Below, in pieces: positions 4,431 to 18,621 of a stretch of 64,000 nt of DNA. The DNA is taken from NCBI RefSeq assembly GCF_024802625.1, contig NZ_CP103371.1, forward strand, positions 1,674,001 to 1,738,000. The letters run 5' to 3'. The DNA comes from Massilia sp. H6. GTDB taxonomy: Bacteria > Pseudomonadota > Gammaproteobacteria > Burkholderiales > Burkholderiaceae_D. A program made the position numbers and the translations under genes. Within the stretch, counting starts at the first letter, position 1; each line of letters begins with the position of its first letter. The notes beneath the pieces were generated by a model that was not told the DNA's origin, did no database searches, and saw nothing but the letters and a program-made list of their open reading frames with translations.

Positions 4431-7400
4431 TTAGTCCACGCCTACTCCGACCTGGCCGTTGGCAGCGACTGCCTTGCCTTCGGTTGCCGGGACCGGGATC
4501 GGGTTGGTGGCATCCACGGTAATCAAGGTGCGGCCGACCGCCGTAGCGCCGTTCATCAGGAAGTCCACCGCGCCGAGGTAACGCTGACCCTGGGCCAGGT
4601 TGGACCAGCTGGCAGCTGCCGACGAGGTGCCGCCGGTGAACACGCTGCCTGGCACGCTGACCTTCAGGTCGCCGCCGGCTTCGCCCCTGCCCACGACCCA
4701 CGATGCCAGGGTGTAGGTAGCGCTGTCGCCGTTCGGGGCGTAGCCCGCCACGCAGACACGGTAGGTACCGGCTGCCGGGTTGGTCAGGGTCACCGTCTCG
4801 TTGGAAGTCGCGGTGCCGCTGTAGCCCACCTGAACACCGGCCGCATTCATCACGATCAGGTCGAGGTCGTCCGACTTGCCCGCCTTGAAGCCGCTGGTGT
4901 CGATGTCGCGCAGCGAGAAGCGGGCCACCATCGTGTTGGCAGGGACGGTCACATTGGTAGCCGTGACGCCAGGTGCGCCGCCGTTGCGGCACTCGATCAC
5001 GCCGCCATCGGCAGCCACGGTGCGCCCGACGCTTTGCTCGGCCAGGCTCGCCGCCTTCAGGCCGCCAGTGCTTGCGCTGAGCTTGCCAGTGAAGCCGGTA
5101 CCGACGGTGAACACGTGATTGCCGCTAACCTGCTCGCTATGCACGGTCGATGGCGACGTGAATGCCTGCGGACGCGCGGTCAGTGGGCTGCGCACGACAT
5201 ACTTGCCGTCGTCGGTGCGCCATTCCAGCGCGCCGAATGCGAACTGGTCCATCGCCGCGTTGGTGCGGGTCAGGCTGACGTTGAAGTTGGCCTTGGCGCC
5301 CGGTGCCAGGTTCAGGGTTGCCGGGTTGACGGTAACGGTAAAGCCCGGTACCGAGGCAGTGGCGCGGAAGCTTTGCGGCTGGCCGCTGACGTTGGTGACG
5401 GTGCGCATCATGGTCAGCTTGCCCAGCACGCTGCCAGCTGTGATCGACGGCAGGTTCAGGTTGTGCGCGGCGATGCTGCCCGTGCTCGAGCAGGTTGCCG
5501 CACTGAGGATGCCACCCACGCCGCACATGAAGCGCTGGTAGTCGAGCGTGCCGGCGTCGTACACCAGTCCCGGGTCGGTGGCCTTGTTCGGCACCACATG
5601 ACCGGCACCCTGGCCCCATGGCAGGCGACCGGAACGGGCGTCGGTGAGCGGATAGGCGTCGGCAAAGGTGCCGGCGGCGGTCGTCATCAGGGCCGACTTG
5701 ATGGCCGCTGGCGACCAGTCAGGGTGCTGCTGCCTGAGCACGGCGGCCAGGCCGGCCACGTGCGGGCTCGACATCGAGGTGCCCTGGATCGCTGCCCATG
5801 CGGCCTCGGGTACGGCGCTGCCGTTGGCAATCGCGTCGCGTTCGGACTGGCTCTTGGCCGGGGAATAGCCGGCGACGATGTCCACGCCCGGCGCGGTCAA
5901 GTCTGGCTTGAGGATGCTGCTGTAGCCGCGGTTCGGGCCGCGCGACGAGAAGCCCGCCACGACCGGCGCCGGGGTCTGGCCGATTTGCGCGCTCCAGGTG
6001 CCGATGGCAACGGTGGCATTCGGGGAGCCCAGCACGTAGTTGAGCAGGGCGGTGCCATCGGCCAGGTTCAGGTGCACGGTTGGTACCGAATGTTTTTCTG
6101 CTACCAGGCCGGCGCCGTTATCGACCAGTACCATGCCTACGCCGCCGGCCTGGGCCACGGCCTTGCTCTTGTCGACACGGGCGGTATTGCCGCGCTCGCA
6201 GACGACCACCTTGCCTGCGACCTTGCTGGCGTCGATCATGCCGTTGGTAGTGCCGCCAAAGGACACGCGATCGGCTTCGGTGTAGCACAGGCGGCGGACC
6301 AGCTTGTCGGTGGCGCTCAGATCGGCGTAAGGCACCACACCAGCATCGCGCGCCGAGATGGCGGCCGTGGCTGGCAAGGCGGTCGTATTGAACGACGCGC
6401 CGATGTAGTTGGTACCGGCGCCAGTCGTGGCCGTGGCGCCATTGAGGCGGTTATGAGTCGATGCGGCGACCGAGGTCAACCATGGGCTCAGGTGGGCGAC
6501 CGCATTGTTCGGGCCGGAATTGCCGGCCGAAGCGGCGACAAAGACGTTGGCGTTCGACGCACCGAAGAACGCCTGTTCGACCGCATCGTTGACAGTAACT
6601 TGCGAGCCGCTGATCGAGTAGTTGATGACGTTGACGCCGTCGGCCACGGCCTGGTCGATTGCCGCCACGCTGTCCGCAGAAAAACAGCTGCTGCGGCTGC
6701 CGGAACCGTCGGGATTGGTCGCATCCGGATAGGTCCAGCACACCTTGTATGCAGCGATGCGCGCGCGCGGGGCCATGCCGCTGGCCTTGCCCACGGCCAC
6801 GCCGTTGAGCATGACCGCGACATTGCTGTTGCCGCCAGCGGTGGAGGCAGTGTGGGTGCCGTGGCCGCCCTTGCCGGTTGCGCCGCCGACCGAGTCGCGC
6901 GGCGAGGTGAAATCGGTCCAGTGCGCAGTGCGGCCGGTGGACAGGAAGGCTTTGTTGAAGTAGCGCGCGCCGATCAGCTTGTTGTTGCAATGCGATGCGG
7001 TAAAGCCTTCGCCGGTTTCGCAGGCGCCGTTCCAGCCGGCCGGGGCCGCGCCGAAGGCCAGTTCGCCCGACGAGTCGAAGGTCGGGTCGCCATTTGCGTC
7101 CACGCGGTCAGCAAAAGACTTGTTCTCTGGCCAGATGCCGCTGTCGACGATGCCGATGACCACGCCTTCGCCAGCCTTGCCGTCTGCCGACTTGCTCCAC
7201 AGGCCAGTGCCGTCCTTCTTGTCGATGCCGAGGAAGGTCGGGGTAAAGTTGGTGTCCAGGCTGAGCTCTTCGTCGGCCGTGATGTTGGCGACGGCCGGGT
7301 TGGCCTTGAGTGCCTTGACTTCGGCGTCGGTCATCATGGCCGCGAAGCCATTGAAGACCAGCTTGTACTTGTGGGTCACCTGGGCCGCGTTCACGCTCGA

Positions 7401-7646
7401 CAAGACATTGTCTTGCTTCTGGTCGAGGTAGGCGACATAGGCCTGCACGTCGCCGGCGCTCACATTGAGCTGCTGGCCGGCGGCCGGCTTGGTTGGCTGC
7501 AGGCCGGCGACGCCGCCGGTATACGAAGCAGCCGGCTTGTCGGCTAGTTGCACGATGTAGGAGCGACGCACGTCATCGGCGGATGCGCTCATTGCCACGC
7601 TGGCGAGCAGCGTGAGTACGGCGAGAGAAACAGGACGCAGTTTCAT
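4431..7646 (-). CDS. Secreted subtilisin-like S8 serine protease with I9 propeptide and PA domain
   Basis: Large exported serine protease (1071 aa). Signal peptide 1-23 (ending SASA). An I9 inhibitor propeptide covers about 28-130 (YIVQL ... VVANI-type end). The catalytic triad is visible: Asp168 in GIVDSGIWPE, His262 in GHGTHTAS, Ser624 in GTSMSSPHVAG. A PA domain (about 430-545) is inserted between His and Ser, as in plant subtilases and bacterial cucumisin-like proteases. An Fn3-like domain (about 720-820) and a C-terminal beta domain of pre-peptidase C-terminal type (about 880-990) follow. AAGGA upstream supports the start. It sits 40 nt behind a PEP-CTERM gene on the same strand, so the two may be one transcript. 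Likely a substrate of the neighbouring secretion machine (inference). Confidence 0.92.
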   Translation of the reverse strand: MKLRPVSLAVLTLLASVAMSASADDVRRSYIVQLADKPAASYTGGVAGLQPTKPAAGQQLNVSAGDVQAYVAYLDQKQDNVLSSVNAAQVTHKYKLVFNGFAAMMTDAEVKALKANPAVANITADEELSLDTNFTPTFLGIDKKDGTGLWSKSADGKAGEGVVIGIVDSGIWPENKSFADRVDANGDPTFDSSGELAFGAAPAGWNGACETGEGFTASHCNNKLIGARYFNKAFLSTGRTAHWTDFTSPRDSVGGATGKGGHGTHTASTAGGNSNVAVMLNGVAVGKASGMAPRARIAAYKVCWTYPDATNPDGSGSRSSCFSADSVAAIDQAVADGVNVINYSISGSQVTVNDAVEQAFFGASNANVFVAASAGNSGPNNAVAHLSPWLTSVAASTHNRLNGATATTGAGTNYIGASFNTTALPATAAISARDAGVVPYADLSATDKLVRRLCYTEADRVSFGGTTNGMIDASKVAGKVVVCERGNTARVDKSKAVAQAGGVGMVLVDNGAGLVAEKHSVPTVHLNLADGTALLNYVLGSPNATVAIGTWSAQIGQTPAPVVAGFSSRGPNRGYSSILKPDLTAPGVDIVAGYSPAKSQSERDAIANGSAVPEAAWAAIQGTSMSSPHVAGLAAVLRQQHPDWSPAAIKSALMTTAAGTFADAYPLTDARSGRLPWGQGAGHVVPNKATDPGLVYDAGTLDYQRFMCGVGGILSAATCSSTGSIAAHNLNLPSITAGSVLGKLTMMRTVTNVSGQPQSFRATASVPGFTVTVNPATLNLAPGAKANFNVSLTRTNAAMDQFAFGALEWRTDDGKYVVRSPLTARPQAFTSPSTVHSEQVSGNHVFTVGTGFTGKLSASTGGLKAASLAEQSVGRTVAADGGVIECRNGGAPGVTATNVTVPANTMVARFSLRDIDTSGFKAGKSDDLDLIVMNAAGVQVGYSGTATSNETVTLTNPAAGTYRVCVAGYAPNGDSATYTLASWVVGRGEAGGDLKVSVPGSVFTGGTSSAAASWSNLAQGQRYLGAVDFLMNGATAVGRTLITVDATNPIPVPATEGKAVAANGQVGVGVD

Positions 7647-7686: not shown

Positions 7687-8493
7687 TTACTTGCTGCCAG
7701 CGCGGCGACGGCGGGCGGCGCTCAGGCCGACAACGCCGAGCAGCATCAGTCCGATCGAGGCGGGCTCTGGCACTTCGGCCAGGGTGATGTTGTCGACGGC
7801 GAACTGGGCCTGGTTCTGGGTGACATCGCGCGCGACCTGGCAGTCGCCGAACTCGTCGTAGAGGCAGGCGTTGATAGTCAGGCTGCGCAGCACGCTGGAG
7901 CTGAAAGCGCTGTCGACGCCGAAGCTGGCGAAGGTGAAGTTGCCGCCGGCATCCTGGCCCGGGAAGTCACGCGAGTCGATGATCGCGGCGCCGGCACTGG
8001 TGATGCCGCTCAGCAGCAGGCGGCCGAAGCTGAAGTCTGGCTGTCCTGGCGTTGGGGCGATGAAGGCGAACGACAGGCCGCGCAGCTGGAACAGGTTGTT
8101 GGCCAGCGTGCTCGTGAGCGTCAGCGCGCCGTCGTTCAGGCCGGCGTAATAGCTGCCGGTGCCGCCGCTCGGGCAGGCCGTGATGGTGCAGGCAAACGCA
8201 TTGTTCGACCGGATTTGCGCGCCGACCAGGCCATAGTCGTCCGCGTCCGCGGTCGGGCTGTTCTTCACTTGCAGCAGGAAGTGCTGGTCCATGAAGCGGT
8301 CGCCGGTATTGTAGACGGTGTCGCTGGCGCGGAGCGTGGACGACACCACGTTCTGCACGTTTTCGAAGGTCAGGACCGTTGCGTGCGCAGGAGCGAAGGC
8401 ACCCAGTGCGGCAACCGCCGATGCACACAGCAATTTTTTCAGGAAGGCAGGCATGGCAGAGGTGCTTGCAGCAGTGTGGTTTTCGCGTTTCAT
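7687..8493 (-). CDS. PEP-CTERM sorting-domain protein (268 aa)
   Basis: Exported protein with an exosortase sorting signal; function unknown. The chosen start (MKRENHTAAS...) has AAGG about 13 nt upstream; an internal start at MPAFLKKLL is possible. The signal peptide ends at AHA (about residue 36 of this model). The body is a beta-rich domain that includes the pair CTITACPSGG. The C-terminus carries VPEPASIGLMLLGVVGLSAARRRR, the classical PEP motif, helix and basic tail. The frame stays open upstream to 8592, but that extension has no signal-peptide character. It lies directly upstream of the S8 protease gene in the same direction. Confidence 0.85.
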   Translation of the reverse strand: MKRENHTAASTSAMPAFLKKLLCASAVAALGAFAPAHATVLTFENVQNVVSSTLRASDTVYNTGDRFMDQHFLLQVKNSPTADADDYGLVGAQIRSNNAFACTITACPSGGTGSYYAGLNDGALTLTSTLANNLFQLRGLSFAFIAPTPGQPDFSFGRLLLSGITSAGAAIIDSRDFPGQDAGGNFTFASFGVDSAFSSSVLRSLTINACLYDEFGDCQVARDVTQNQAQFAVDNITLAEVPEPASIGLMLLGVVGLSAARRRRAGSK

Positions 8494-9003
8494 CAGTCTG
8501 GTTACCTTATGGTTTAGTTTGTCTGGCAGTGCCGATTGCTGTGCCGGTTCCCGGCAATAGTTCCACCCCGCATTTTCCGTTACGGGTTGCAATCGAATAT
8601 AGCAAACGAAATAATGATGATGTAAAAAATTTTAACGTAGGAAATTTTGTGATGAGGCAACTGAGCCAAAGAAAATTCTGTTTCCGCTAGCAAAGAATGA
8701 TTTCAAACTAAGTTGATTTCTGTGCGAAATTTGCGACACGTTTGCCTACCCGGGTAGCGAAAAGACGACGTTTATGGCAGAGCCATCAACATCGATCGGC
8801 GAGTAATTCCTATGGGCAATTTTTGCGAAATGGGTGGTGCGAAAGAAAAGTTGTCTCAACTATTCTTGCCGTGGTAGCCTGCTCGGCGCAAAGCGTCCGC
8901 GGGGGCGTGTCCTGGCTACCCGGTAATGCCGGCGTGTCCCGGAGCCGGGCAACCGGCGCCTTGCGAAAAGTCTTATTCGTTGAGCAATCGAGGAGTCCGT
9001 CGG
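8494..9003. other. 510-nt intergenic region between divergent PEP-CTERM and gspG-like genes
   Basis: No credible gene. The left half (8580-8740) is much more AT-rich than the surroundings and probably carries promoters in both directions. The right half contains several short inverted repeats: CTACCCGGGTAG at 8746-8757, ATGGCAGAGCCAT at 8774-8786, TACCCGGTA near 8918, and CCCGGAGCCGGG near 8938-8949. This could be a structured leader of the secretion operon; see findings. Confidence 0.5.
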
Positions 9004-9441
9004 ATGTATGCAGTAATGAAACAAAATCAGATCCGGCGCGCCGGCGGTTTCACGCTACTCGAGCTGCTGGTCGTGATCGTGATCATCGGCCTGCTGGCCG
9101 CCTATGTCGGTCCTAAATATTTCTCCCAGCTGGGCAAGTCCGAAGTCACGGTGGCCAAGGCCCAGATCGAAGCCTTCGACAAGTCGCTCGACACCTACCG
9201 GCTCGACGTCGGTCGTTATCCCACTTCCGAAGAAGGCCTGGGCGCCCTGATGACCGCGCCGCCGAGTGCCGGCGCCAAATGGAACGGGCCTTACCTGAAG
9301 AAGGGCGTACCGCAGGATCCATGGGGCCGGGTCTACCAGTACCGCGCGCCGGGCAGCAAGGCCGAGTACGAGATCATCTCGCTGGGCAAGGATGGCCAGC
9401 CCGGCGGGACCGGCGACAACGCCGACATCTCGTCGCAGTAA
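9004..9441 (+). CDS. gspG: Type II secretion major pseudopilin, GspG-like
   Basis: Major pseudopilin that builds the periplasmic pseudopilus. Class III prepilin signal: a 15-residue leader ending AGG, cleaved before FTLLELLVV, with the conserved Glu5. The body has the GspG signature: DVGRYPTSEEGLGALM, WNGPYLKKGVPQDPWGRVYQYRAPG, and a Gly/Asp-rich end (GDNADISS) like the calcium-binding loop of GspG. 145 aa matches the family. GAGGAG 8 nt before the ATG fixes the start; a second ATG lies 12 nt further in. First gene of an operon that runs to 18621. Confidence 0.93.
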   Translation: MYAVMKQNQIRRAGGFTLLELLVVIVIIGLLAAYVGPKYFSQLGKSEVTVAKAQIEAFDKSLDTYRLDVGRYPTSEEGLGALMTAPPSAGAKWNGPYLKKGVPQDPWGRVYQYRAPGSKAEYEIISLGKDGQPGGTGDNADISSQ

Positions 9442-9487
9442 TTCGCTGCAGCGCCACTTCTCCCAGTTCTAAGCCGGACACGCCTCC

Positions 9488-10678
9488 ATGCAGTTTGCCG
9501 TCCGTACCCTCGCGCCTGACATGTCGATCGAGAACATCGTTGTCGACGCCAACGATGCACTCGAGGCGCGCCGCCAGGTCGAGGCGCGCGGCCTGTTCGT
9601 CAGCACGGTCGAGCCGGCGCGCGGTGGCAGGCGCCTTGCCCGCCAGCGCGCCGGCAAGCTCTCGATCGTGCTGTTCAGCCAGGAGCTGCTGGCCCTGCTC
9701 AACGCCGGCCTGGGCATCGTCGAAAGCCTCGAGGCGCTGCTGGAAAAGGAAGCCAATCCCGGCGCGCGCAGCGTGCTCGAAGGCCTGCTTGGCGGCCTGC
9801 GCGAGGGCAAGCGCTTCTCGGCGGTGCTGGCAAGCCAGGCGGATCTGTTCCCGCCTTTGTATGTCGGTATCGTGCGCGCCGCCGAAGGCACCAGCGACCT
9901 GCCGCGCGCGCTGGCGCGCTATATCGATTACCAGCAGCGCATCGACACGGTGCGCAGCAAGATCGTCAGTGCGTCGATCTATCCGGTTATTCTGCTGATG
10001 GTGGGTGGCGGCGTGAGCGGCTTTCTGGTGGGCTACGTGGTGCCGAAGTTCGCCGAGGTGTATCACGGGGCGGGGCGCTCGCTGCCATGGATGTCGCAGC
10101 TGCTGCTCGACTGGGGCAAGTTCGCTTCGAACAACGGCACGGTCATTGCGATCACGGCGCTGCTGCTGCTAACTAGCGTGATCGCCGGCGTACGCCACCT
10201 GCTGCGTACCGGCGGCGTCGCGCGCCTGCTGGCACGCCTGCCGGGCATCGGCGAGCGCGCCCGCATCTACGAACTGTCGCGCCTGTACCTGACCCTGGGC
10301 ATGCTGGCCGAAGGCGGCATCACCGTCGTCAATGCCATCGAGACCGTGCAGTCGATGGTCTCGGGCACCGTGGCCAAGGGCCTGGGCCAGGCGCGGCTGG
10401 CGATCGAATCGGGCCAGCCGCTGTCGCATGCCTTCGAAGCCAATGGCCTGACCACGCCGATCTCGCTGCGCATGCTGCGGGTAGGCGAGCGCACCGGCGA
10501 CATGGGACCGATGCTGACCCAGTCGGCCGCGTTCTACGATGGCGAGATCACGCGCTGGATCGACCGCTTCACCCGCACCTTCGAGCCGCTGCTGATGGCC
10601 GCCATTGGCTTGGTGGTCGGCGCCATCGTGGTATTGCTGTACATGCCGATCTTCGACCTTGCCGGTGACATGTCATGA
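9488..10678 (+). CDS. gspF: Type II secretion inner-membrane protein GspF
   Basis: Polytopic inner-membrane platform protein of the type II secretion/type IV pilus family (396 aa). Two GspF domains are visible (about 60-185 and 265-390), each followed by hydrophobic segments (IYPVILLMVGGGVSGFLVGYVVP; LLMAAIGLVVGAIVVLLYMPIF). The N-terminal cytoplasmic segment starts MQFAVRTLAPD and includes a short domain for contact with the ATPase. The gene lies 46 nt after gspG and ends just before the ATPase gene. Confidence 0.93.
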   Translation: MQFAVRTLAPDMSIENIVVDANDALEARRQVEARGLFVSTVEPARGGRRLARQRAGKLSIVLFSQELLALLNAGLGIVESLEALLEKEANPGARSVLEGLLGGLREGKRFSAVLASQADLFPPLYVGIVRAAEGTSDLPRALARYIDYQQRIDTVRSKIVSASIYPVILLMVGGGVSGFLVGYVVPKFAEVYHGAGRSLPWMSQLLLDWGKFASNNGTVIAITALLLLTSVIAGVRHLLRTGGVARLLARLPGIGERARIYELSRLYLTLGMLAEGGITVVNAIETVQSMVSGTVAKGLGQARLAIESGQPLSHAFEANGLTTPISLRMLRVGERTGDMGPMLTQSAAFYDGEITRWIDRFTRTFEPLLMAAIGLVVGAIVVLLYMPIFDLAGDMS

Positions 10679-10688
10679 AAGCGATGTC

Positions 10689-12363
<1,675 letters not shown>

Positions 12364-12371
<8 letters not shown>

Positions 12372-13170
12372 GACTGGACAATCGCTGCGCCTGGGCATTG
12401 CCTCGGACGGGCTGGCGCTGCTGCGCGTGGGCGGCGTGCTCGCCCCAGGCGCCGAGGTAGTGGCCGTGCAGCCAGTCGAAGCCGGCGCGCCCGATGCGCT
12501 GGCGATCGGCCTGCGCGCGCTGCTGCTCGAGGCCGCGCCGCGCGGCTGGCCGCTGACGGTGGTGCTGGCCGACGAGCTGGTGCGCCTGTGGCCGGTGACG
12601 CCGCCGCGCGGCGCTTCGCGCCTGGGCGACCTGCAGGCCGCCGCCGCCTTTCGCTTCCAGGCATTGTTCGGCGCGCCGCCGGCGCAATGGCGCATCAGCG
12701 CCGACTGGAGCGCAAGCCGGCCTTTCCTGGCCGCGGCCGTGCCCGTGGCCCTGCTGGAATTGCTGGAAGCGCTGGCGCGCGAATACCGGCTGCACCTGGT
12801 CGAGGCAGAGCCGCAGTTCGTCGCGGCGATGAACGCCTGGCGCCGCGAACGCCGGCCCGGCGCCTGGTTTGGACTGGTGCATGGTGGCGTGCTGACGCTG
12901 GCAGCCTTTGACGGTACCGCGCTGGCCGCCGTGCGCACCGCGCCGATCCCGGAAGACGCCGACCGCGACTGGCTCGAGGCCCACGTCGCGCGCGAGGCGC
13001 TGCGGGTGGGGGTAGGGCGGCCCGAGCGCCTGCAGCTGTGCGGGGCCGTGCCGGGCGGCTGGGCCAGTGCTGCAGGCCGCCTGAAATTTGCCTGCACCGT
13101 GCTCGAAGACGACAGCCTGGGCGACTGGCCACTGCATGTGCGCCTGGCGCGTACCGGAATCAAGACATGA
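12364..13170 (+). CDS. PilM/GspL-like cytoplasmic platform protein (268 aa)
   Basis: Probably the actin-fold cytoplasmic partner that ties the ATPase to the inner-membrane platform, equivalent to PilM or to the N-terminal half of GspL. Evidence is mostly position and architecture: soluble, no membrane helix, starts LGIASDGLALLRVGG, has TVVLADELVRLWPVTPP in the middle and a GlyGly-containing (FGLVHGGVLTLAAFDG) second subdomain like the ATPase fold. It is shorter than classical GspL because the periplasmic part is encoded separately by the next gene. Overlaps gspE by 8 nt and the next gene by 4 nt. Confidence 0.65.
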
Positions 13171-13715
13171 AGCGACTCCACATCGATTTCGCGCCACGCT
13201 CGCTACACCGGACCTTGTTCCGCACGCCCGGGCGCATCGCCTTCTTGGCCGTGGCGTTCGGCTGCCTGCTACTGGTCGCGGCGACGCATTGGAGCGCCTA
13301 CCGCGAGCAGCGCGAGCAGCTCGATGCGCTGCACGCCGCGTTGGCGGCGCGCAGCCTGGCCGCGCGCCCGCACCAGGTATCCGAGCGGTCGAAGCCGGCC
13401 TTGCCCGAAGCCCAGGTGCAGGCGGTGAACAACGCCATCATGCAGCTCAACCTGCCGTGGCGCGACCTGGTCGAGGCCGTGCGCGCGGCCACGCCGCCGG
13501 ATGTGGCGCTGCTGGCGCTGGAACCCGATGCCAGGCAGCGCAGCCTGCGCATCACGGCCGAGACCCGCACTAGCGACGACATGCTGGCCTATGTGGCGCG
13601 GATGCAGGAGCAGGGGTGGTTCGCGTCGGTCGTGCTGACCCGTCACGAAATCGCCGAAGAAGATCCGAACCGTCCGCTGCGTTTCCAGCTCAGCGCACAG
13701 TGGGGCGGCCAATGA
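13167..13715 (+). CDS. PilN-like inner-membrane protein (182 aa)
   Basis: Single-pass inner-membrane protein: short basic N-terminus, one transmembrane helix (about 26-45, IAFLAVAFGCLLLVAA), a coiled-coil-prone stretch (REQREQLDALHAALAARS), then a small ferredoxin-like periplasmic domain with LNLPWRDLVEAVRAATPPDVALLALEPD. That phrase is typical of PilN and the GspL C-terminal region. It starts at an ATGA overlap with the preceding stop and ends the same way on the next gene. Role inferred: pairs with the PilO-like protein to form the periplasmic part of the platform. Confidence 0.72.
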   Translation: MKRLHIDFAPRSLHRTLFRTPGRIAFLAVAFGCLLLVAATHWSAYREQREQLDALHAALAARSLAARPHQVSERSKPALPEAQVQAVNNAIMQLNLPWRDLVEAVRAATPPDVALLALEPDARQRSLRITAETRTSDDMLAYVARMQEQGWFASVVLTRHEIAEEDPNRPLRFQLSAQWGGQ

Positions 13716-14278
13716 ACACGCTTGACTTGCTGACGTGGTGGCTGCGCCTGCAATTATGGGTGCGGCGCGTGAACCCGGTCATTGCGGGGGCAGTTGGCTT
13801 GCTGGTGCTGGTCAATGGCGCCTTGATCTGGCTGGCAGTGGCGCGCGCCGAGCTGGAACAGCAATACGCGGCGGCGCGCAGCCAGGCCGCGCTGCCGGCG
13901 GCGGCGCCGCCGGTCGCGCCGCCCGACGCCAACCAGAACCTGGCGCAGTTCTATGGCGCGCTGGGCGAGCGCCGCCAGGTCGAGCGCCAGTTGAAGATGC
14001 TGTTCGCGCTGGCCGCCAAAAACGGCCTGGTGCTGCGCCAGGGCGAATACCGCAGCAACTACGACCGCGCGGCAAAGCTCTACACCTACCACATCAATTT
14101 GCCGGTAACGGGCAAGTATGCGGCCATCTGGCAGTTCGCCTTCGACGCGCTGCGCGCGCTGCCGCATGCTTCGCTCGACGACGTGAGCTTTCGCCGCGAC
14201 GCCATTGGCGTCGATGCCGTCGAGGCGCGCCTGCGCATGACGCTATACCTGTCCGCAGCGCCGGGGGAGGTGCGATGA
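13712..14278 (+). CDS. PilO/GspM-like inner-membrane protein (188 aa)
   Basis: Single-pass membrane protein: helix at about 22-43 (NPVIAGAVGLLVLVNGALIWLAV), a coiled-coil stretch (RAELEQQYAAARSQAAL), an Ala/Pro linker (58-70) and a periplasmic domain with the PilO/GspM-like pattern YGALGERRQVERQLKMLFALAAKNGLVLRQGEYR and YHINLPVTGKYAAIWQFAFDALRALPHASLDDVSF. Translationally coupled to both neighbours by ATGA overlaps. Assignment rests on topology, size and order; the sequence match to PilO is reasonable but not certain. Confidence 0.7.
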   Translation: MNTLDLLTWWLRLQLWVRRVNPVIAGAVGLLVLVNGALIWLAVARAELEQQYAAARSQAALPAAAPPVAPPDANQNLAQFYGALGERRQVERQLKMLFALAAKNGLVLRQGEYRSNYDRAAKLYTYHINLPVTGKYAAIWQFAFDALRALPHASLDDVSFRRDAIGVDAVEARLRMTLYLSAAPGEVR

Positions 14279-14844
14279 GGCCGCGCCACCTTGCCATGGG
14301 AGCCGCACTGGTGCTGGCCGCCGCCCTGGTGGTGTTTGGCGACAGCACGCCGGACGACGCCGTGGCCGAGCCGGTCGTGCGGGTTGAGCGGGTCGAGTCC
14401 ACACCGGCCGCCAGATCGCCCGCCGCCGGCGCCGCCGAAGTGGCGGTCTTGCGCCTGGTGCCGCGCGCAAGCCTGATCGGCCTTGACGACGACCGTTTCG
14501 GCGAGGGCGAGGGCGAGGGTGAGGGCAAGGGCAGGGACGAAGGCGCGCTGTTCGGGCGCCAGGACTGGACCCCGCCGCCGCCGCCGCCGCCGCCCCCGCC
14601 CGAGCCGGTTGCGCCGGCGCCGCCGCCGAGCGCGCCGCCCCTGCCATTTACCTTCATCGGAAAATCGCTCCAGGACGGCGTATGGGAGATATATCTCGCC
14701 CGCGGCGAGCGCAGTTTTTCGGTACGCGAGAACATGGTCATTGACGGCAACTATCGCGTCGACGCGATCAAGCCGCCGGTGCTGATCCTGACCTACCTGC
14801 CGCTGAACCAGGTTCAGCAGCTCAATATTGGAGTATTCGACTGA
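14275..14844 (+). CDS. GspC/PilP-like periplasmic linker protein with GE repeat and polyproline
   Basis: Probably links the inner-membrane platform to the secretin, as GspC or PilP do. An N-terminal hydrophobic anchor (about 5-22) is followed by a flexible region with a Gly-Glu repeat (GEGEGEGEGKG) and ten consecutive prolines. The C-terminal domain (about 125-189) has the HR/PilP-like pattern FTFIGKSLQDGVWEIYLARG, SVRENMVIDGNYRVDAIKPP and LILTYLPLNQVQQLNIG. The repeats are encoded by GGCGAG and CCG runs (14500-14531 and 14571-14602) and are likely length-variable. ATGA overlap with the upstream gene; its stop overlaps the secretin ATG by one base. Confidence 0.65.
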   Translation: MRPRHLAMGAALVLAAALVVFGDSTPDDAVAEPVVRVERVESTPAARSPAAGAAEVAVLRLVPRASLIGLDDDRFGEGEGEGEGKGRDEGALFGRQDWTPPPPPPPPPPEPVAPAPPPSAPPLPFTFIGKSLQDGVWEIYLARGERSFSVRENMVIDGNYRVDAIKPPVLILTYLPLNQVQQLNIGVFD

Positions 14845-16883
14845 TGGTTCGTTTCCGGAATACTGCGCTGGCAGCGTGCATGATGACCGTGCTGCTGGCC
14901 GGCTGCGCAGGACAGCGCGCCTACCAGCAGGGCACTGCCCTGGTGGCGAAAGACCAGGTCGCGGCTGGCCTGGTGAAATACCAGGAGGCAGTGGCCGCCG
15001 ACCCGAATAACGCGCAGTACAAGAGCGCCTACCTGCGCACGCGTGACAGCGCCGCCGCGCGCCTGCTGGGCCAGGCCGAGGATGCGCTGGCGGGCGGCCA
15101 GCCCGAGCTGGCGCTGCAGGACTACCGCCGCGTCCTTGGCTTCGATCCAGCCAACGAGCGCGCCCGTGCCGGCCTGCGCGCGATCGAGGCCGATCGCCGC
15201 CACGCCAGCATGATGGAAGCGGCGCGCGCCGCGCTCGAGAAAAACGAGCTCGATAGCGCGCGCCAGAAGCTTGGCGCCGTGCTGACCGAACGTCCGGGCC
15301 ACGAGCCGGCGCGCCAGCTGCTGCTCGAGATCGACCAGAAGGCCGAGGCCGTGCCCGCTGGCGAAGCCGCGCTGGCGGCGAGCTTTCGCAAGCCGATCAG
15401 TCTCGAGTTCCGCGACGCCCCGCTCAAGCAGGTGTTCGAGATCATCTCGCGCCACTCGGGCCTGAACTTCGTCTTCGACAAGGACGTCAAGGCCGATAAC
15501 CGCACCTCGATCTTCCTGAAGAACAGTACGGTGGAAGCGGCGGTGTACTACCTGTTGATGACCAACCAGCTCGAGCGCCAGGTCATGGACGGCAATACCA
15601 TCCTGATCTACCCGAACATCGCGGCCAAGCTGAAGGAATACCAGGAGATGACGGTCAAGACCTTCTTCCTGGCCAACGCCGACGCCAAGAACATCGCCAA
15701 CACCTTCAAGACCATCCTCAAGGCGCGCGACGTGGTGGTGGACGAGAAGCTCAATCTGGTGATCCTGCGCGACAGCCCGGAAGCGGTGCGCGTGGCCACC
15801 CAGCTGGTGGCCCTGCAGGACGTGCCCGAACCGGAAGTCATGCTCGACGTCGAAGTGCTCGAGATCAAGCGCAGCCGCATTACCGACCTGGGCATCTCGT
15901 GGCCAGGATCGCTGTCCTTCGCCCCCCTGGCCGGCCTCGATGGCGCCCCGCTCACCATCGACCAGTTGCGCGGCCTGAACCGCGGCAACATCGGCGTGAT
16001 CAGCGACCTGAGCGCCACCGTCAATGCCAACAAGATCGATGGCGATTCCAACACCCTGGCCAATCCGCGCATCCGCGTGCGCAACAAGGAAAAGGCCAAG
16101 GTCGTCATTGGCGACAAGATCCCGAACATCTCGACCACGATCTCGTCCGGCGTGGGCGGCTTCGCTTCCGAATCGGTCAACTATGTCGATGTCGGCCTGA
16201 CCTTGAACGTCGAGCCGACCATCTACCTGAATAACGAAGTGGCGATCCGCATCTCGCTCGAGGTCAGCACCTTGGGCGAATCGGTCACGACGCGCGCCGG
16301 CACCGTGGCCTACCGCATCGGTACCCGCTCGGCCACCACGCTGCTGCAGCTCAAGGATGGCGAGAACCAGGTGCTGGCCGGCCTGATCAGCAATGAAGAC
16401 CGCTCCAGCGGCAGCAAGGTGCCGGGCATCGGCGACCTGCCGATCATCGGCCGCCTGTTCGGCAGCACGCGCGACCAGAACGACCGCACCGAGATCGTGC
16501 TGTCGATCACGCCGCGCCTGGTGCGCACCGTGCAGCGCCCTCCGGCGTCGGCGTCCGAATTTGGCGCCGGCACCGAAGCGAGCTTCCGCCGCCGCCCCGA
16601 CACCGCGGTGCGCGCACCAGTCCAGCTGCCGGGCGCCGCTGCCGCCGCCGCCCGCGCCGCCACCGCCACCGCCGGCGCCGCCACGGTGCCTGGCGCGCCC
16701 GCCGCGCCGCTGTCGGTGCCTCCATCGCAGCTGCCGGTGACTCCGCAAACCGGTTCGCCGCAATCGGCGCCGCCGGGCGCGCTGCCGACGCCGCCAGTGG
16801 TTGCGCCGCCCGCCACGCCGGCCAACATCGAGGTGATCCCGGTTGCGCCGCCGCCAGCGGCCACGCCGCCGGCCCGCCAATGA
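14844..16883 (+). CDS. gspD: Type II secretion secretin, lipoprotein (GspD-like)
   Basis: Outer-membrane channel of the secretion system (679 aa). Lipoprotein signal with lipobox LLAGC at about 18-22, which may allow self-targeting without a pilotin. Residues 25-160 form TPR-like helical repeats, unusual for GspD. A short N0/STN domain follows (about 185-265, PISLEFRDAPLKQVFEIISR), then one N1 module (about 270-330) and the secretin core (about 335-580) with VGLTLNVEP, LLQLKDGENQVLAGLIS and VPGIGDLPIIGRLFGS. The last 95 residues are an Ala/Pro-rich tail. Fewer N-domains than classical GspD; closer to type IV pilus or MSHA secretins in layout. Confidence 0.88.
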   Translation: MVRFRNTALAACMMTVLLAGCAGQRAYQQGTALVAKDQVAAGLVKYQEAVAADPNNAQYKSAYLRTRDSAAARLLGQAEDALAGGQPELALQDYRRVLGFDPANERARAGLRAIEADRRHASMMEAARAALEKNELDSARQKLGAVLTERPGHEPARQLLLEIDQKAEAVPAGEAALAASFRKPISLEFRDAPLKQVFEIISRHSGLNFVFDKDVKADNRTSIFLKNSTVEAAVYYLLMTNQLERQVMDGNTILIYPNIAAKLKEYQEMTVKTFFLANADAKNIANTFKTILKARDVVVDEKLNLVILRDSPEAVRVATQLVALQDVPEPEVMLDVEVLEIKRSRITDLGISWPGSLSFAPLAGLDGAPLTIDQLRGLNRGNIGVISDLSATVNANKIDGDSNTLANPRIRVRNKEKAKVVIGDKIPNISTTISSGVGGFASESVNYVDVGLTLNVEPTIYLNNEVAIRISLEVSTLGESVTTRAGTVAYRIGTRSATTLLQLKDGENQVLAGLISNEDRSSGSKVPGIGDLPIIGRLFGSTRDQNDRTEIVLSITPRLVRTVQRPPASASEFGAGTEASFRRRPDTAVRAPVQLPGAAAAAARAATATAGAATVPGAPAAPLSVPPSQLPVTPQTGSPQSAPPGALPTPPVVAPPATPANIEVIPVAPPPAATPPARQ

Positions 16884-16912
16884 CGCCGCCATGAATCAGC
16901 CATGAAGCATCC

Positions 16913-17386
16913 ATGATCGCGCGACGCGGCTTTACCCTGATCGAGCTGCTGGTGACGCTGGCCATTCTGGCCCTGCTGGGCACGCTGGTGGTGCCGGTGG
17001 CCCAGGTCACGGCCCAGCGCCGCGACGAGGCCCAGCTGCGCCGCGCATTGCACGACATCCGCGGCGCCATCGACGCCTACAAGAAAGCCAGCGACGAAGG
17101 CCGGGTGGCCAAGGCCGCCGGCGCCAGCGGCTACCCGCCGCGCCTTGAGGTGCTGGTCGAGGGCGTGCGCGACCTGCGCAGTCCCCGGCAAGCACGGATA
17201 TATTTCTTGCGGCGCTTGCCGCGCGACCCGTTCAATCCCGACCCCGACCTGGCCGACGCCGCCACCTGGGGCAAGCGCAGCTATGCCAGCGAGCCAGACC
17301 AGCCGAAAGAGGGCGACGACGTCTACGATGTGGTGTCGACGTCGGACCGGATCGGGCTCAATGGCATTCCGTATGCAAGATGGTGA
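16913..17386 (+). CDS. Type II secretion pseudopilin (157 aa)
   Basis: Pseudopilin-like protein. A very short prepilin leader (MIARRG) is cleaved before FTLIELLVTLAILALLGTLVVP, with Glu5 present. The body has GspG-like features (RDEAQLRRALHDIRGAIDAYKKASDEG; DPFNPDPDLADAATWGKRSYAS; DVVSTSDRIGLNGIPYARW). It ends with the same Y-A-x-W motif as the next gene product, pointing to duplication within the operon. Probably a pseudopilus subunit; whether it corresponds to GspH or GspI, or is a second GspG-like subunit, cannot be settled from sequence alone. Confidence 0.82.
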   Translation: MIARRGFTLIELLVTLAILALLGTLVVPVAQVTAQRRDEAQLRRALHDIRGAIDAYKKASDEGRVAKAAGASGYPPRLEVLVEGVRDLRSPRQARIYFLRRLPRDPFNPDPDLADAATWGKRSYASEPDQPKEGDDVYDVVSTSDRIGLNGIPYARW

Positions 17387-17393
17387 CCAGGAC

Positions 17394-17792
17394 ATGGTAA
17401 AGACGATGCGCAGTTTCCCGCGGCGCCGGCGCGCCTTTACATTGATCGAGCTGCTGGTGGTGCTGGGTATCGTGGCGCTGCTGCTGACGCTGGCGGTGCC
17501 GCGGTTTTTTCCGAGCATCGACAGCACCCGCGAAACCATTTTGCTGGAAAACCTGCGCAATACGCGCGCGGTCATCGACCAGTTCCATGCCGATACCGGC
17601 CGTTACCCGGACTCCCTCGAGCAGCTGGTGGAAAAAAAATACCTGCGCGAACTGCCGATGGACCCGATCCTGGACAGCCGCGAGGGCTGGATCATCGAGC
17701 CGCCCCCGGAAGGCGAGCAGGGCGTGCTCGGCAACCTGCGCAGCGGCGCGCCCGGCACGGGCCGCAAGGGCGCTCCTTATGCGCAGTGGTAG
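17394..17792 (+). CDS. Type II secretion pseudopilin with Ala at -1 (132 aa)
   Basis: Second pseudopilin-like protein of the set. The leader MVKTMRSFPRRRRA precedes FTLIELLVVLGIVALLLTLAVP, with Glu5 present. The residue before the cleavage point is Ala, where prepilin peptidases normally have Gly. The body matches GspG-type proteins: ENLRNTRAVIDQFHADTGRYPDSLEQLVEKKYLRELPMDPI and a C-terminal GAPYAQW. The start at 17394 is preceded by CCAGG. The gene follows the previous one by 7 nt and overlaps the next by 14 nt. Confidence 0.8.
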   Translation: MVKTMRSFPRRRRAFTLIELLVVLGIVALLLTLAVPRFFPSIDSTRETILLENLRNTRAVIDQFHADTGRYPDSLEQLVEKKYLRELPMDPILDSREGWIIEPPPEGEQGVLGNLRSGAPGTGRKGAPYAQW

Positions 17793-18621
17793 GGTGCGTA
17801 CGACGGGCATGCTGCATCGGGCATTGCGGCGCCAGGCCGGCTTCACTTACCTTGGCCTGATCATCTTTGTTTTCATCGTCGGCATGGTCGGCGCCGCGAC
17901 ACTGAAAGTGGAGTCGCTGCTGCGGCGCGCCCAGGCCGAAACCGAGCTGCTCGAGACCGGCGCCCAATTTGCCGCCGCGCTCAAGAGTTATGCCGAGGCC
18001 ACGCCGCGTGGCCAGCCGCCGCAGCCTTTGACGCTGCAGGAACTGCTGCGCGACCCGCGCTTTCCGAACCCGCGCCGCCACCTGCGCAAGATCTTCGTCG
18101 ATCCGGTCACCGGCCAGGCCGAATGGGGCCTGGTGCGCGCCGGCGACGGCGGGCGCATCCTGGGCGTGCACAGCCTGTCGCAGGCGCAGCCGCTCAAGCT
18201 GGCGAAATTCGACGCGCGCTTTCCCAATTTCGAGAACAAGCGACACCTGGCAGACTGGAAATTCATGGCGACCGGGCAGGGCGCGCTGACGCCTGCCGCG
18301 CCGGGCACGCAGCCAGGGATGGCGCCGCCGCAACCCATCATGGCGCCGCCGCCTGAGGCGCCATCCGGCCCGGTGGCGGCCCCGGTGGCGGCGCAGGCGC
18401 CGATGCAGGAAGTCGCGCCGCCGGCGCGCGCTGAACCGGAACCCGCGTCGGAACCCGCGCCGGAACCCGAGCCGGAACCCGCGCCGCAACCCGAACCCGA
18501 ACCGGAGCCGCCAGCGCCGCCGGCGCAGGACGAGGCCAGCGACGACAGCAAAGTCGATCCCGCAGCGAACAAGGACGAGGACGATCCAAAAGAGCCGCCG
18601 GCGCGCGAATCCGGGCGCTGA
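17779..18621 (+). CDS. Pseudopilin-like protein lacking Glu5, with long acidic/proline tail
   Basis: Prepilin-type protein of about 280 aa. After QAG comes FTYLGLIIFVFIVGMVGAATL: the usual Glu5 is replaced by Gly, a feature otherwise known from the tip pseudopilin GspK. Residues 50-165 form a globular domain (RDPRFPNPRRHLRKIFVDPVTGQAEWGLV ... WKFMATGQ). From about 170 onward the protein is low complexity: Pro/Ala/Met-rich, then EPEPEP repeats and an acidic end (DEASDDSKVDPAANKDEDDPKE). The start at 17779 has AAGG 9 nt upstream; an ATG at 17809 would give a more typical leader length. Last gene of the secretion operon, convergent with murJ with only 6 nt between stops. Confidence 0.75.
   Translation: MRSGRVRTTGMLHRALRRQAGFTYLGLIIFVFIVGMVGAATLKVESLLRRAQAETELLETGAQFAAALKSYAEATPRGQPPQPLTLQELLRDPRFPNPRRHLRKIFVDPVTGQAEWGLVRAGDGGRILGVHSLSQAQPLKLAKFDARFPNFENKRHLADWKFMATGQGALTPAAPGTQPGMAPPQPIMAPPPEAPSGPVAAPVAAQAPMQEVAPPARAEPEPASEPAPEPEPEPAPQPEPEPEPPAPPAQDEASDDSKVDPAANKDEDDPKEPPARESGR

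What the first reader, a model, noticed from the sequence alone, without database searches (positions are those of the whole stretch)
9004..18621. Hybrid secretion operon: GspG/F/E and secretin with a PilMNOP-like platform
Ten or more overlapping genes encode a complete-looking machine, but not in the classical gspCDEFGHIJKLM set. GspL is split into a soluble PilM-like protein and a separate membrane PilN-like protein. The secretin is a lipoprotein with N-terminal TPR-like repeats and few N-domains, and the linker protein is GspC/PilP-like. No retraction ATPase, no prepilin peptidase and no MshM/ExeA-type ATPase are in the operon. This is either a distinct lineage of type II secretion or a secretion system evolved from type IV pili.
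Basis: partly seen in the sequence, partly recalled or inferred. Interest (0 to 1): 0.75.

Follow-up and report, generated by a model that had tools for sequence, protein, structure and literature searches.

The report
Unorthodox type II secretion operon
Eleven adjacent genes encode a protein-export machine that resembles the type II secretion system but is built on a pilus-type inner-membrane platform; it forms a separate, widespread branch in Burkholderiales that genome papers have so far only listed as an "unorthodox" secretion system with unknown cargo.

Summary
Window 9004-18621 carries 11 open, tightly packed genes: GspG, GspF, GspE, PilM-, PilN-, PilO- and PilP-like proteins, a lipoprotein secretin (TPR-N0-N1-secretin) and three more pseudopilins, the last lacking Glu5. 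No PilT, prepilin peptidase or MshM/ExeA ATPase is in the operon; the genome has classical T2SS, MSHA, type IVa and Tad loci elsewhere. ATPases and secretins form clades of their own, outside classical T2SS and MSHA (support 100). The secretin occurs in 62 of 150 Burkholderiales genomes, 41 of them without a classical GspE, so the system is independent. It is not unknown: papers on Ralstonia describe "unorthodox T2SS" of seven core plus four hypothetical genes between gspE and gspD, one beside rhsB. Equivalence rests on that description, not on a sequence test. I read it as a T2SS-like secretion machine with a self-piloting secretin for large exoproteins. Cargo evidence is suggestive only: the window's S8 protease family occurs in 25 of 145 family genomes, all operon carriers, and RHS/SpvB-type proteins flank 6 of 59 loci against 0 of 60 controls. 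Whether it is closer to T2SS or MSHA is unresolved (AU p 0.098 against joining T2SS).

The parts
9004..9441 (+). GspG major pseudopilin (GFTLLE cleavage site; C-terminal loop GKDGQPGGTGDNADI resembles the GspG calcium loop, resemblance recalled)
   Evidence: PF08334 E 2.6e-41; TIGR01710 174 bits, over cut-off 88.85
9488..10678 (+). GspF-like inner-membrane platform protein
   Evidence: PF00482; TIGR02120 245 bits, under cut-off 424
10689..12371 (+). GspE-like assembly ATPase with MshEN domain and CxxC-CxxC zinc motif; start unsure (TTG 10689 or 10605; searches used 10674 onward, five residues more)
   Evidence: PF00437, PF05157; TIGR02533 492 bits, under cut-off 630; own clade in tree; start region read
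12364..13170 (+). PilM / GspL-cytoplasmic-domain-like actin-fold protein (soluble)
   Evidence: AlphaFold pLDDT 93.3; Foldseek PilM 5eox E 3.9e-12, EpsL cyto 1yf5 TM(target) 0.64; no sequence family
13167..13715 (+). PilN-like membrane protein (ATG 13167; searches used 13161 onward, two residues more)
   Evidence: PF05137 E 4.4e-6; 5 of 9 orthologues match PilN, 1 of 9 GspL_C
13712..14278 (+). PilO-like (GspMb-like) membrane protein (ATG 13712; searches used 13709 onward, one residue more)
   Evidence: orthologue profile hits PilO 3jc8 E 2.6e-10; PilO 4 of 11 and T2SSM_b 4 of 11 orthologues
14275..14844 (+). PilP/GspC-like linker with proline-rich stretch
   Evidence: orthologue profile hits PilP 4av2 E 0.0038; T2SSC in 1 of 10 orthologues, E 0.035: weak
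14844..16883 (+). secretin lipoprotein: lipobox, TPR helices (about 21-181), N0, N1, secretin domain
   Evidence: PF07660, PF03958, PF00263; N-terminal model; Foldseek PilQ; lipobox pattern in 101 of 110 relatives
16913..17386 (+). second pseudopilin (Glu5 present), weak GspG likeness
   Evidence: N_methyl, TIGR01710 41 bits; Glu5 in 76 of 78 relatives
17394..17792 (+). third pseudopilin (Glu5 present)
   Evidence: N_methyl, TIGR01710 41 bits; Glu5 in 75 of 78 relatives
17779..18621 (+). fourth pseudopilin without Glu5, candidate tip subunit; acidic proline-rich tail
   Evidence: GFTYLG motif read in the sequence; GspH at E 0.043 only; Glu5 in only 1 of 78 relatives
4431..7646 (-). S8 subtilase (I9 propeptide, PA, fn3), divergent neighbour, candidate cargo
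   Evidence: PF00082 E 2.1e-39; same family at E<=1e-60 in 25 of 145 family genomes, all 25 with the operon secretin
7687..8592 (-). ORF with PEP-CTERM motif, divergent neighbour
   Evidence: PF07589 E 1.6e-5; similar protein at 18 of 50 named loci L076-L125

Best explanation
This is an independent secretion machine of the T2SS kind, the type called 'unorthodox T2SS' in Ralstonia genomes. Shown by sequence or model: an assembly ATPase (E), platform (F), GspG major pseudopilin, three further pseudopilins of which the last lacks Glu5, a PilM/N/O/P-type inner-membrane connecting complex (P weakly), and a secretin with a lipobox and a built-in TPR domain ahead of N0-N1. Inferred: the ATPase, coupled through PilM/PilN, drives growth of a short GspG fibre with the Glu5-less subunit at its tip; the PilP-like linker joins the platform to the secretin; lipid and TPR domain replace a separate pilotin (TPR pilotins such as PilF/PilW and the lipidated secretin HxcQ are recalled precedents); processing is by the genome's prepilin peptidase encoded elsewhere; the fibre pushes large folded Sec-exported proteins through the secretin. 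Likely cargo here: the adjacent S8 protease and perhaps the PEP-CTERM protein.
For: GspG over the curated GspG cut-off. Separate ATPase and secretin clades. Conserved 11-gene cluster. Distribution independent of classical GspE: 21 both, 41 operon only, 31 GspE only, 57 neither of 150 genomes, odds ratio 0.94, so it is not an accessory of the classical system. PilM-type fold, PilN, PilO. Tip-like pseudopilin without Glu5. Lipobox in 101 of 110, none with Asp at +2. Large exported proteins beside many copies: S8, GH64, GH2, nuclease, RHS, M4 peptidase. S8 family at E<=1e-60: 25 of 25 carrier genomes have the operon, 0 of 87 operon-negative genomes have it. RHS/SpvB/YD proteins at 6 of 59 loci against 0 of 40 T2SS and 0 of 20 random loci. 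In Janthinobacterium agaricidamnosum the classical gspE mutant keeps its protease halo on milk agar (PMC10470514 passages), though no copy of the operon was sought in that strain.
Against: No experiment on this operon was found in the searches listed. S8 is not enriched beside the operon in the Burkholderiales sample (4 of 59 loci against 2 of 40 T2SS and 0 of 20 random), and GH64 was at 0 of those 59. The S8 carriers fall in 6 genera; apart from G551, no operon-negative genome of those genera is among the negatives listed, but 67 negatives were not listed, so shared descent may explain the co-occurrence. Only 15 of 34 S8 copies lie within 20 kb of an operon secretin. murJ on the other side of the Massilia loci is conserved too, so synteny alone can keep neighbours together. 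The RHS count was made after seeing RHS neighbours, and two of the six loci (L062, L193) come from one genome; RHS was at 0 of 50 of the named loci L076-L125. Two relatives have a PilT-family ATPase in the cluster, which fits a retractable pilus.
Confidence: 0.72

Rival explanations
1. A type IV pilus (adhesion or DNA uptake) of a new subtype that uses GspG-like pilins, rather than a secretion system.
For: PilM/N/O/P-type platform; ATPase tree joins it to MSHA pili (98/87); PilT-family ATPase in two relatives' clusters.
Against: Major subunit is over the GspG equivalog cut-off; no PilT and no PilY1-like adhesin among the 11 genes; exoenzymes beside many copies; genome already has type IVa, MSHA and Tad loci.
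Confidence: 0.13
2. Secretion system that arose from an MSHA-type pilus independently of classical T2SS (convergent secretion machine), rather than a derived T2SS.
For: ATPase sister to MSHA with 98/87 support; platform genes of the pilus type; the genome's MSHA locus also has a separate PilM-like protein (L017:10222-11157, TIGR01175 34 bits, under cut-off 133).
Against: Joining with T2SS is not rejected (p-AU 0.098); in the F tree MSHA splits off before op, T2SS and L15 (SH-aLRT 89); GspG is T2SS-like; long stem branches; no other phyla in the trees.
Confidence: 0.35
3. A partial or accessory T2SS cluster that shares parts with the classical T2SS of the same genome.
For: Classical T2SS is present in this genome.
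Against: 41 of 62 operon-bearing genomes have no classical GspE over cut-off; the cluster has its own ATPase, platform, secretin and pseudopilins; plasmid-borne clusters.
Confidence: 0.03

Closest known systems
'Unorthodox T2SS' clusters of Ralstonia (passages of PMC5080846, PMC6428702, PMC10875864)
   Same: About 10 kb; seven core gsp genes plus four hypothetical genes between gspE and gspD (another cluster: eight plus three), 11 genes; chromosomal and megaplasmid copies; one copy beside rhsB.
   Different: The passages seen leave the extra genes hypothetical and the function unknown. Sequence orthology with this operon was not tested here.
Geobacter/Pelobacter Pul-OxpG 'atypical' T2SS (passages of PMC3543383; Mehta 2006 seen only as a cited title)
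   Same: T2SS-like system with pseudopilins PulG, OxpG and TklG beside a classical Gsp system; [quoted passage not shown]
   Different: Gene names PulM-PulQ and a secretin lipoprotein there are recalled, not checked; no Desulfobacterota sequence was available for comparison.
Classical T2SS (gspCDEFGHIJKLM), in this genome at C1:470-490 kb (L016)
   Same: E, F, G and secretin homologous; GspG 50% identical to the genome's own.
   Different: GspL split, no GspC/GspM by profile in the window's own proteins, secretin TPR-N0-N1 where GspD has N0-N1-N2-N3 (latter recalled), different clades.
MSHA pilus (L017)
   Same: Nearest ATPase clade in the best tree; a separate PilM-like protein is present there too.
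   Different: No MshM-type ATPase; GspG instead of an MSHA pilin; secretin clade separate.
Type IVa pilus PilMNOPQ (L018, L020)
   Same: PilM/N/O/P-type connecting complex; N0-N1 fold nearest to PilQ.
   Different: No AMIN domain matched in the secretin, no PilT in this operon, GspG pseudopilin; ATPase outside the PilB clade.

Membership tests
Classical T2SS | GspE at or over curated cut-off and inside the GspE clade | tested here: not met
   492 bits against 630.25; own clade, T2SS 10 rows separate at 100/100
Classical T2SS | GspG major pseudopilin | tested here: met
   174 bits against 88.85
Classical T2SS | GspD secretin with N0-N1-N2-N3 | tested here: not met
   One Secretin_N domain, TPR-N0-N1 model; 152 bits against 351
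Classical T2SS | One-piece GspL, GspM and GspC | tested here: not met
   fold of M fits both PilM and GspL cytoplasmic domain; T2SSM_b and PilO match equally often (4 of 11 each)
Classical T2SS | Minor pseudopilins H, I, J, K | tested here: inconclusive
   Three further pseudopilins, none over H/I/J cut-offs; the last lacks Glu5 as GspK does (GspK trait recalled)
Classical T2SS | Secretes folded exoproteins | not testable with these tools
   Neighbour and co-occurrence evidence only
MSHA pilus | ATPase and secretin inside the MSHA clade; MshM and MshN genes | tested here: not met
   Separate clades (only 2 MSHA secretins in the tree); MshL 95 bits against 250; no such genes among the 11
Type IVa pilus | PilB clade ATPase, PilQ over cut-off, PilT in system | tested here: not met
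   PilT family only in relatives L069 and L070
Type IVa pilus | PilMNOP-type connecting complex | tested here: met
   PilN, PilO, PilM-type fold; PilP weak
Unorthodox T2SS of Ralstonia | Seven core gsp genes plus four genes between gspE and gspD | tested here: met
   Gene layout against text seen
Unorthodox T2SS of Ralstonia | Sequence orthology to the Ralstonia clusters | not tested
   No Ralstonia record appeared among the 25 plasmid hits or the best 80 of 454 named matches kept

The most novel reading that the evidence does not exclude
The clade is a third kind of secretin-dependent pseudopilus exporter, beside classical T2SS and pili, with a self-piloting TPR secretin and a dedicated large cargo encoded next to many copies (S8 protease, GH64, GH2, nuclease, M4 protease, or RHS/SpvB-type proteins); it would be the missing outer-membrane exporter for Sec-type RHS/YD-repeat proteins in Burkholderiales.
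Probability: 0.25. Interest if true: 0.8.

Novelty: new variant of a known kind. Interest (0 to 1): 0.5.

Why it matters
A secretion system in about two fifths of sampled Burkholderiales genomes (62 of 150), often in several copies and also on plasmids, is annotated piecemeal: public records mostly call its platform genes hypothetical and its secretin a 'cohesin domain', 'TPR', 'secretin N-terminal' or hypothetical protein. Secretome studies that delete only the classical gsp genes would miss it. It also joins a GspG fibre to a PilMNOP-type platform, which makes the question whether T2SS and pili exchanged platforms directly testable.

Tried and rejected
Tried and rejected: (1) the operon as a broken or accessory T2SS: independent distribution. 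(2) S8 protease as a general neighbour of the system: not enriched in the Burkholderiales sample. (3) Firm MSHA origin: AU test does not reject the T2SS grouping; the F tree does not hold all op rows together well (SH-aLRT 46). (4) Geobacter comparison by sequence: no Desulfobacterota genome was reachable with the searches left. (5) PMC13101487 looked promising by its terms, but its T2SS is the classical one (passages). (6) PMC3482391 passages use 'T2SS' in tables of export routes and did not bear on this cluster. (7) PMC5585712, PMC7894505, PMC6013743 and PMC9765573 passages added nothing on the cluster. (8) A plasmid search with the ATPase (620 records) was dominated by classical E. coli GspE and not used. 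(9) Alignments A3 and A4 each held one mis-assigned row from L158; they were rebuilt as A6 and A7 and not used further. (10) L064 was dropped from the neighbour count because L267 is the same locus. (11) Phage records: 3 weak partial hits, no copy of the operon.

Limits: ORFs in scripts are mechanical; gene labels are by BLAST, so fast-evolving M/N/O genes were missed in some loci; the lipobox and pilin patterns are simple regular expressions; some genomes give two or more loci to the 59; Pfam tables for flanks list only the 25 most-matched families. Searches and trees used E from 10674, N from 13161 and O from 13709, that is five, two and one residues before the likely starts.


Full report
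What is there. Window 9004-18621 (+) holds 11 open genes in one run: GspG, GspF, GspE, four middle genes, a secretin, and three more pseudopilins. Starts of N (13167), O (13712) and P (14275) overlap the stop before them by ATGA; the start of E is unsure. The window lies at C1:1674001-1738000 of a 4.53 Mb genome; the nearest named relative by the secretin segment is Telluria aromaticivorans, 97%, so the host is an Oxalobacteraceae close to Massilia/Telluria (inference).

Component identity. GspG passes the NCBIfam GspG cut-off; GspF, GspE and the secretin are clear homologues under all equivalog cut-offs. The PilN-like gene matches PF05137, as do 5 of 9 orthologues. Orthologue profiles hit Myxococcus PilO at 2.6e-10 and, weakly, Neisseria PilP at 0.0038. 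Four of 11 O orthologues match PilO and four of 11 match T2SSM_b, so O is not purely PilO-like. The first middle gene has no sequence family; its AlphaFold model (43 sequences, pLDDT 93.3) matches PilM best by E-value (5eox, 3.9e-12) and the GspL cytoplasmic domain best by TM-score on the target (0.64), so it is an actin-fold protein of the PilM/GspL kind. The review passages in PMC4471445 call PilMN an orthologue of GspL and PilP a structural homologue of the GspC HR domain, so the 'hybrid' is one known variant of a common platform.

Secretin. The N-terminal model shows TPR helices to about residue 181, then N0 and N1 (pLDDT 84.4, pTM 0.45); Foldseek finds PilQ first, then other N0-N1 domains and TPR proteins. 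A lipobox pattern was found in 101 of 110 related secretins, with Ala (93), Thr (3), Ser (3) or Gly (2) after the cysteine and never Asp. These 110 are dominated by Oxalobacteraceae. I infer outer-membrane sorting and a built-in pilotin; this is not shown.

Pseudopilins. Glu5 is kept in 66 of 66 GspG, 76 of 78 and 75 of 78 of the next two, but in 1 of 78 of the last (5 of those 78 gave no motif). From recalled T2SS biology, lack of Glu5 marks GspK, the tip subunit; I infer a tip role.

Other systems in the genome. PF00437 gives 14 places and PF00263 six. They include a classical T2SS (L016), MSHA (L017), type IVa (L018, L020), and another GspE/F/pilin/secretin locus (L015); a secretin and ATPase at C1:424-427 kb are taken as Tad from their pairing, not tested further. 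A24 peptidases are at two places outside the window.

Phylogeny. ATPase tree, 51 rows: op 28, T2SS 10, T4aP 6 and MSH 4 rows, each one side of a branch at 100/100; op has a stem of 0.77 and is sister to MSH (98/87). Forcing op with T2SS costs 8.5 log units, p-AU 0.098, not rejected. Secretin tree, 41 rows: op 27 rows together at SH-aLRT 100, but long branches meet elsewhere and only 2 MSHA and 1 PilQ rows were in it. Platform tree, 47 rows: op together only at 46, MSH outside op+T2SS+L15 at 89. All rows are Pseudomonadota; the trees lack other phyla.

Distribution. Secretin at E<=1e-30 in 62 of 150 genomes of the order, at 1e-60 in 58 of 145 of the family, at 1e-40 in 5 of 143 of the class draw, 2 of them in the order, and in 3 of 200 of the phylum draw, all in the order; each count includes the window's own genome. 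Several genomes hold two or more copies. Classical GspE over cut-off in 52 of 150; joint table 21/41/31/57, odds ratio 0.94. Plasmid collection: 25 records, including Burkholderia ambifaria, Janthinobacterium, Eleftheria, Cupriavidus metallidurans and Aliiroseovarius. In the seven annotated regions read, the middle genes are mostly 'hypothetical'; one is called PilO and one GspMb/PilO; L157 had no annotation.

Candidate cargo. The window's divergent neighbours are an S8 subtilase and a PEP-CTERM protein. Elsewhere the neighbours include GH64 glucanases with F5/8C domains, GH2, a nuclease, RHS-repeat proteins, S8 and an M4 peptidase; the neighbours shown were picked by size. Counts: S8 at 4 of 59 Burkholderiales operon loci, 2 of 40 classical T2SS loci, 0 of 20 random loci, 20 of 50 of the named loci L076-L125 and 2 of 30 of L126-L155; GH64 at 0 of 59 and 5 of 30; RHS/SpvB/YD at 6 of 59, 0 of 40 and 0 of 20 (one-sided Fisher 0.013 against the 60 pooled, 0.040 against T2SS alone, 0.16 against random alone), 6 of 30 of L126-L155, 0 of 50 of L076-L125 and 2 of 8 plasmid loci. 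A further plasmid locus, L158, has an annotated RHS gene cut by the edge of the stretch. The RHS test was chosen after seeing such neighbours, and two of the six share a genome. In a first subset the operon loci had less flank per locus than the controls (311,953 bases for 40 against 205,877 for 20), which works against a false excess. Across the family, the S8 protein at E<=1e-60 is in 25 of 145 genomes and all 25 are operon carriers; 15 of 34 copies, in 14 genomes, lie within 20 kb of an operon secretin on the same contig. The 25 fall in 6 genera, so descent is not excluded.

What is in print. Passages of PMC5080846, PMC6428702 and PMC10875864 describe Ralstonia 'unorthodox T2SS': seven core genes, one cluster with four hypothetical genes between gspE and gspD, one set with an adjacent rhsB missing from some strains. 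This matches the layout here. PMC3543383 passages describe the Geobacteraceae Pul system with PulG, OxpG and TklG, needed for OmpB secretion. PMC6668835 passages describe a 'generic' class for systems that fit no specific model, chimeric ones included, and the later reassignment of some generic systems to T2SS; I saw this cluster named nowhere there. PMC10470514 passages report one T2SS cluster (GspC-N) in J. agaricidamnosum and protease activity that does not need its gspE. In the search listings, and the passages read, I saw no text that identifies the middle genes of the unorthodox clusters as PilMNOP-like; the library lacks most subscription papers.

Verdict. Real, well conserved, and a distinct lineage; the type is already listed as 'unorthodox T2SS', so the surprise is in its anatomy, its breadth and its untested cargo.

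Noticed in passing
L015 (G000:C1:184000-203500): Another GspE/GspF/pilin/secretin locus in the same genome with a short secretin (439 aa); its ATPase groups with T2SS at 96/83.
   Followed up: partly
L069:433-1449 and L070:756-1772 (- strand): A PilT-family ATPase (467 and 473 bits, cut-off 319) directly after the cluster's last pseudopilin in two genomes of one family; the PilM/PilN position holds a single ORF of about 392 aa without a family match.
   Followed up: partly
L159 (Aliiroseovarius crassostreae plasmid) 6317-6769: Operon copy on alphaproteobacterial plasmids with a gene annotated as A24 (prepilin) peptidase at its head; NCBIfam gave no match to it at 1e-5.
   Followed up: partly
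L135, L136, L139 (Nitrospirillum): Alphaproteobacterial operon copies; L135 groups with a Paraburkholderia copy in the trees, and L133 and L135 both have a GH64 neighbour (Pfam): likely transfer, perhaps with the cargo gene.
   Followed up: partly
L161 (Eleftheria terrae plasmid) 9201-10661: PilM- and PilN-like parts are one 486-aa ORF, a GspL-like fusion inside this clade.
   Followed up: partly
G000:C1:3515603-3517066 (L019): Lone, long-branch GspE-like ATPase (end branch 1.76) without an evident pilus cluster in the 19 kb read.
   Followed up: no
L164 (Janthinobacterium lividum plasmid): Operon copy with rearranged gene order, flanked on both sides by FG-GAP and RHS-repeat proteins.
   Followed up: no
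window 10660-10719: The GspE frame has no in-frame ATG at the junction with gspF, where relative L051 has a 4-base overlap of the two ORFs; the start codon is probably TTG.
   Followed up: partly
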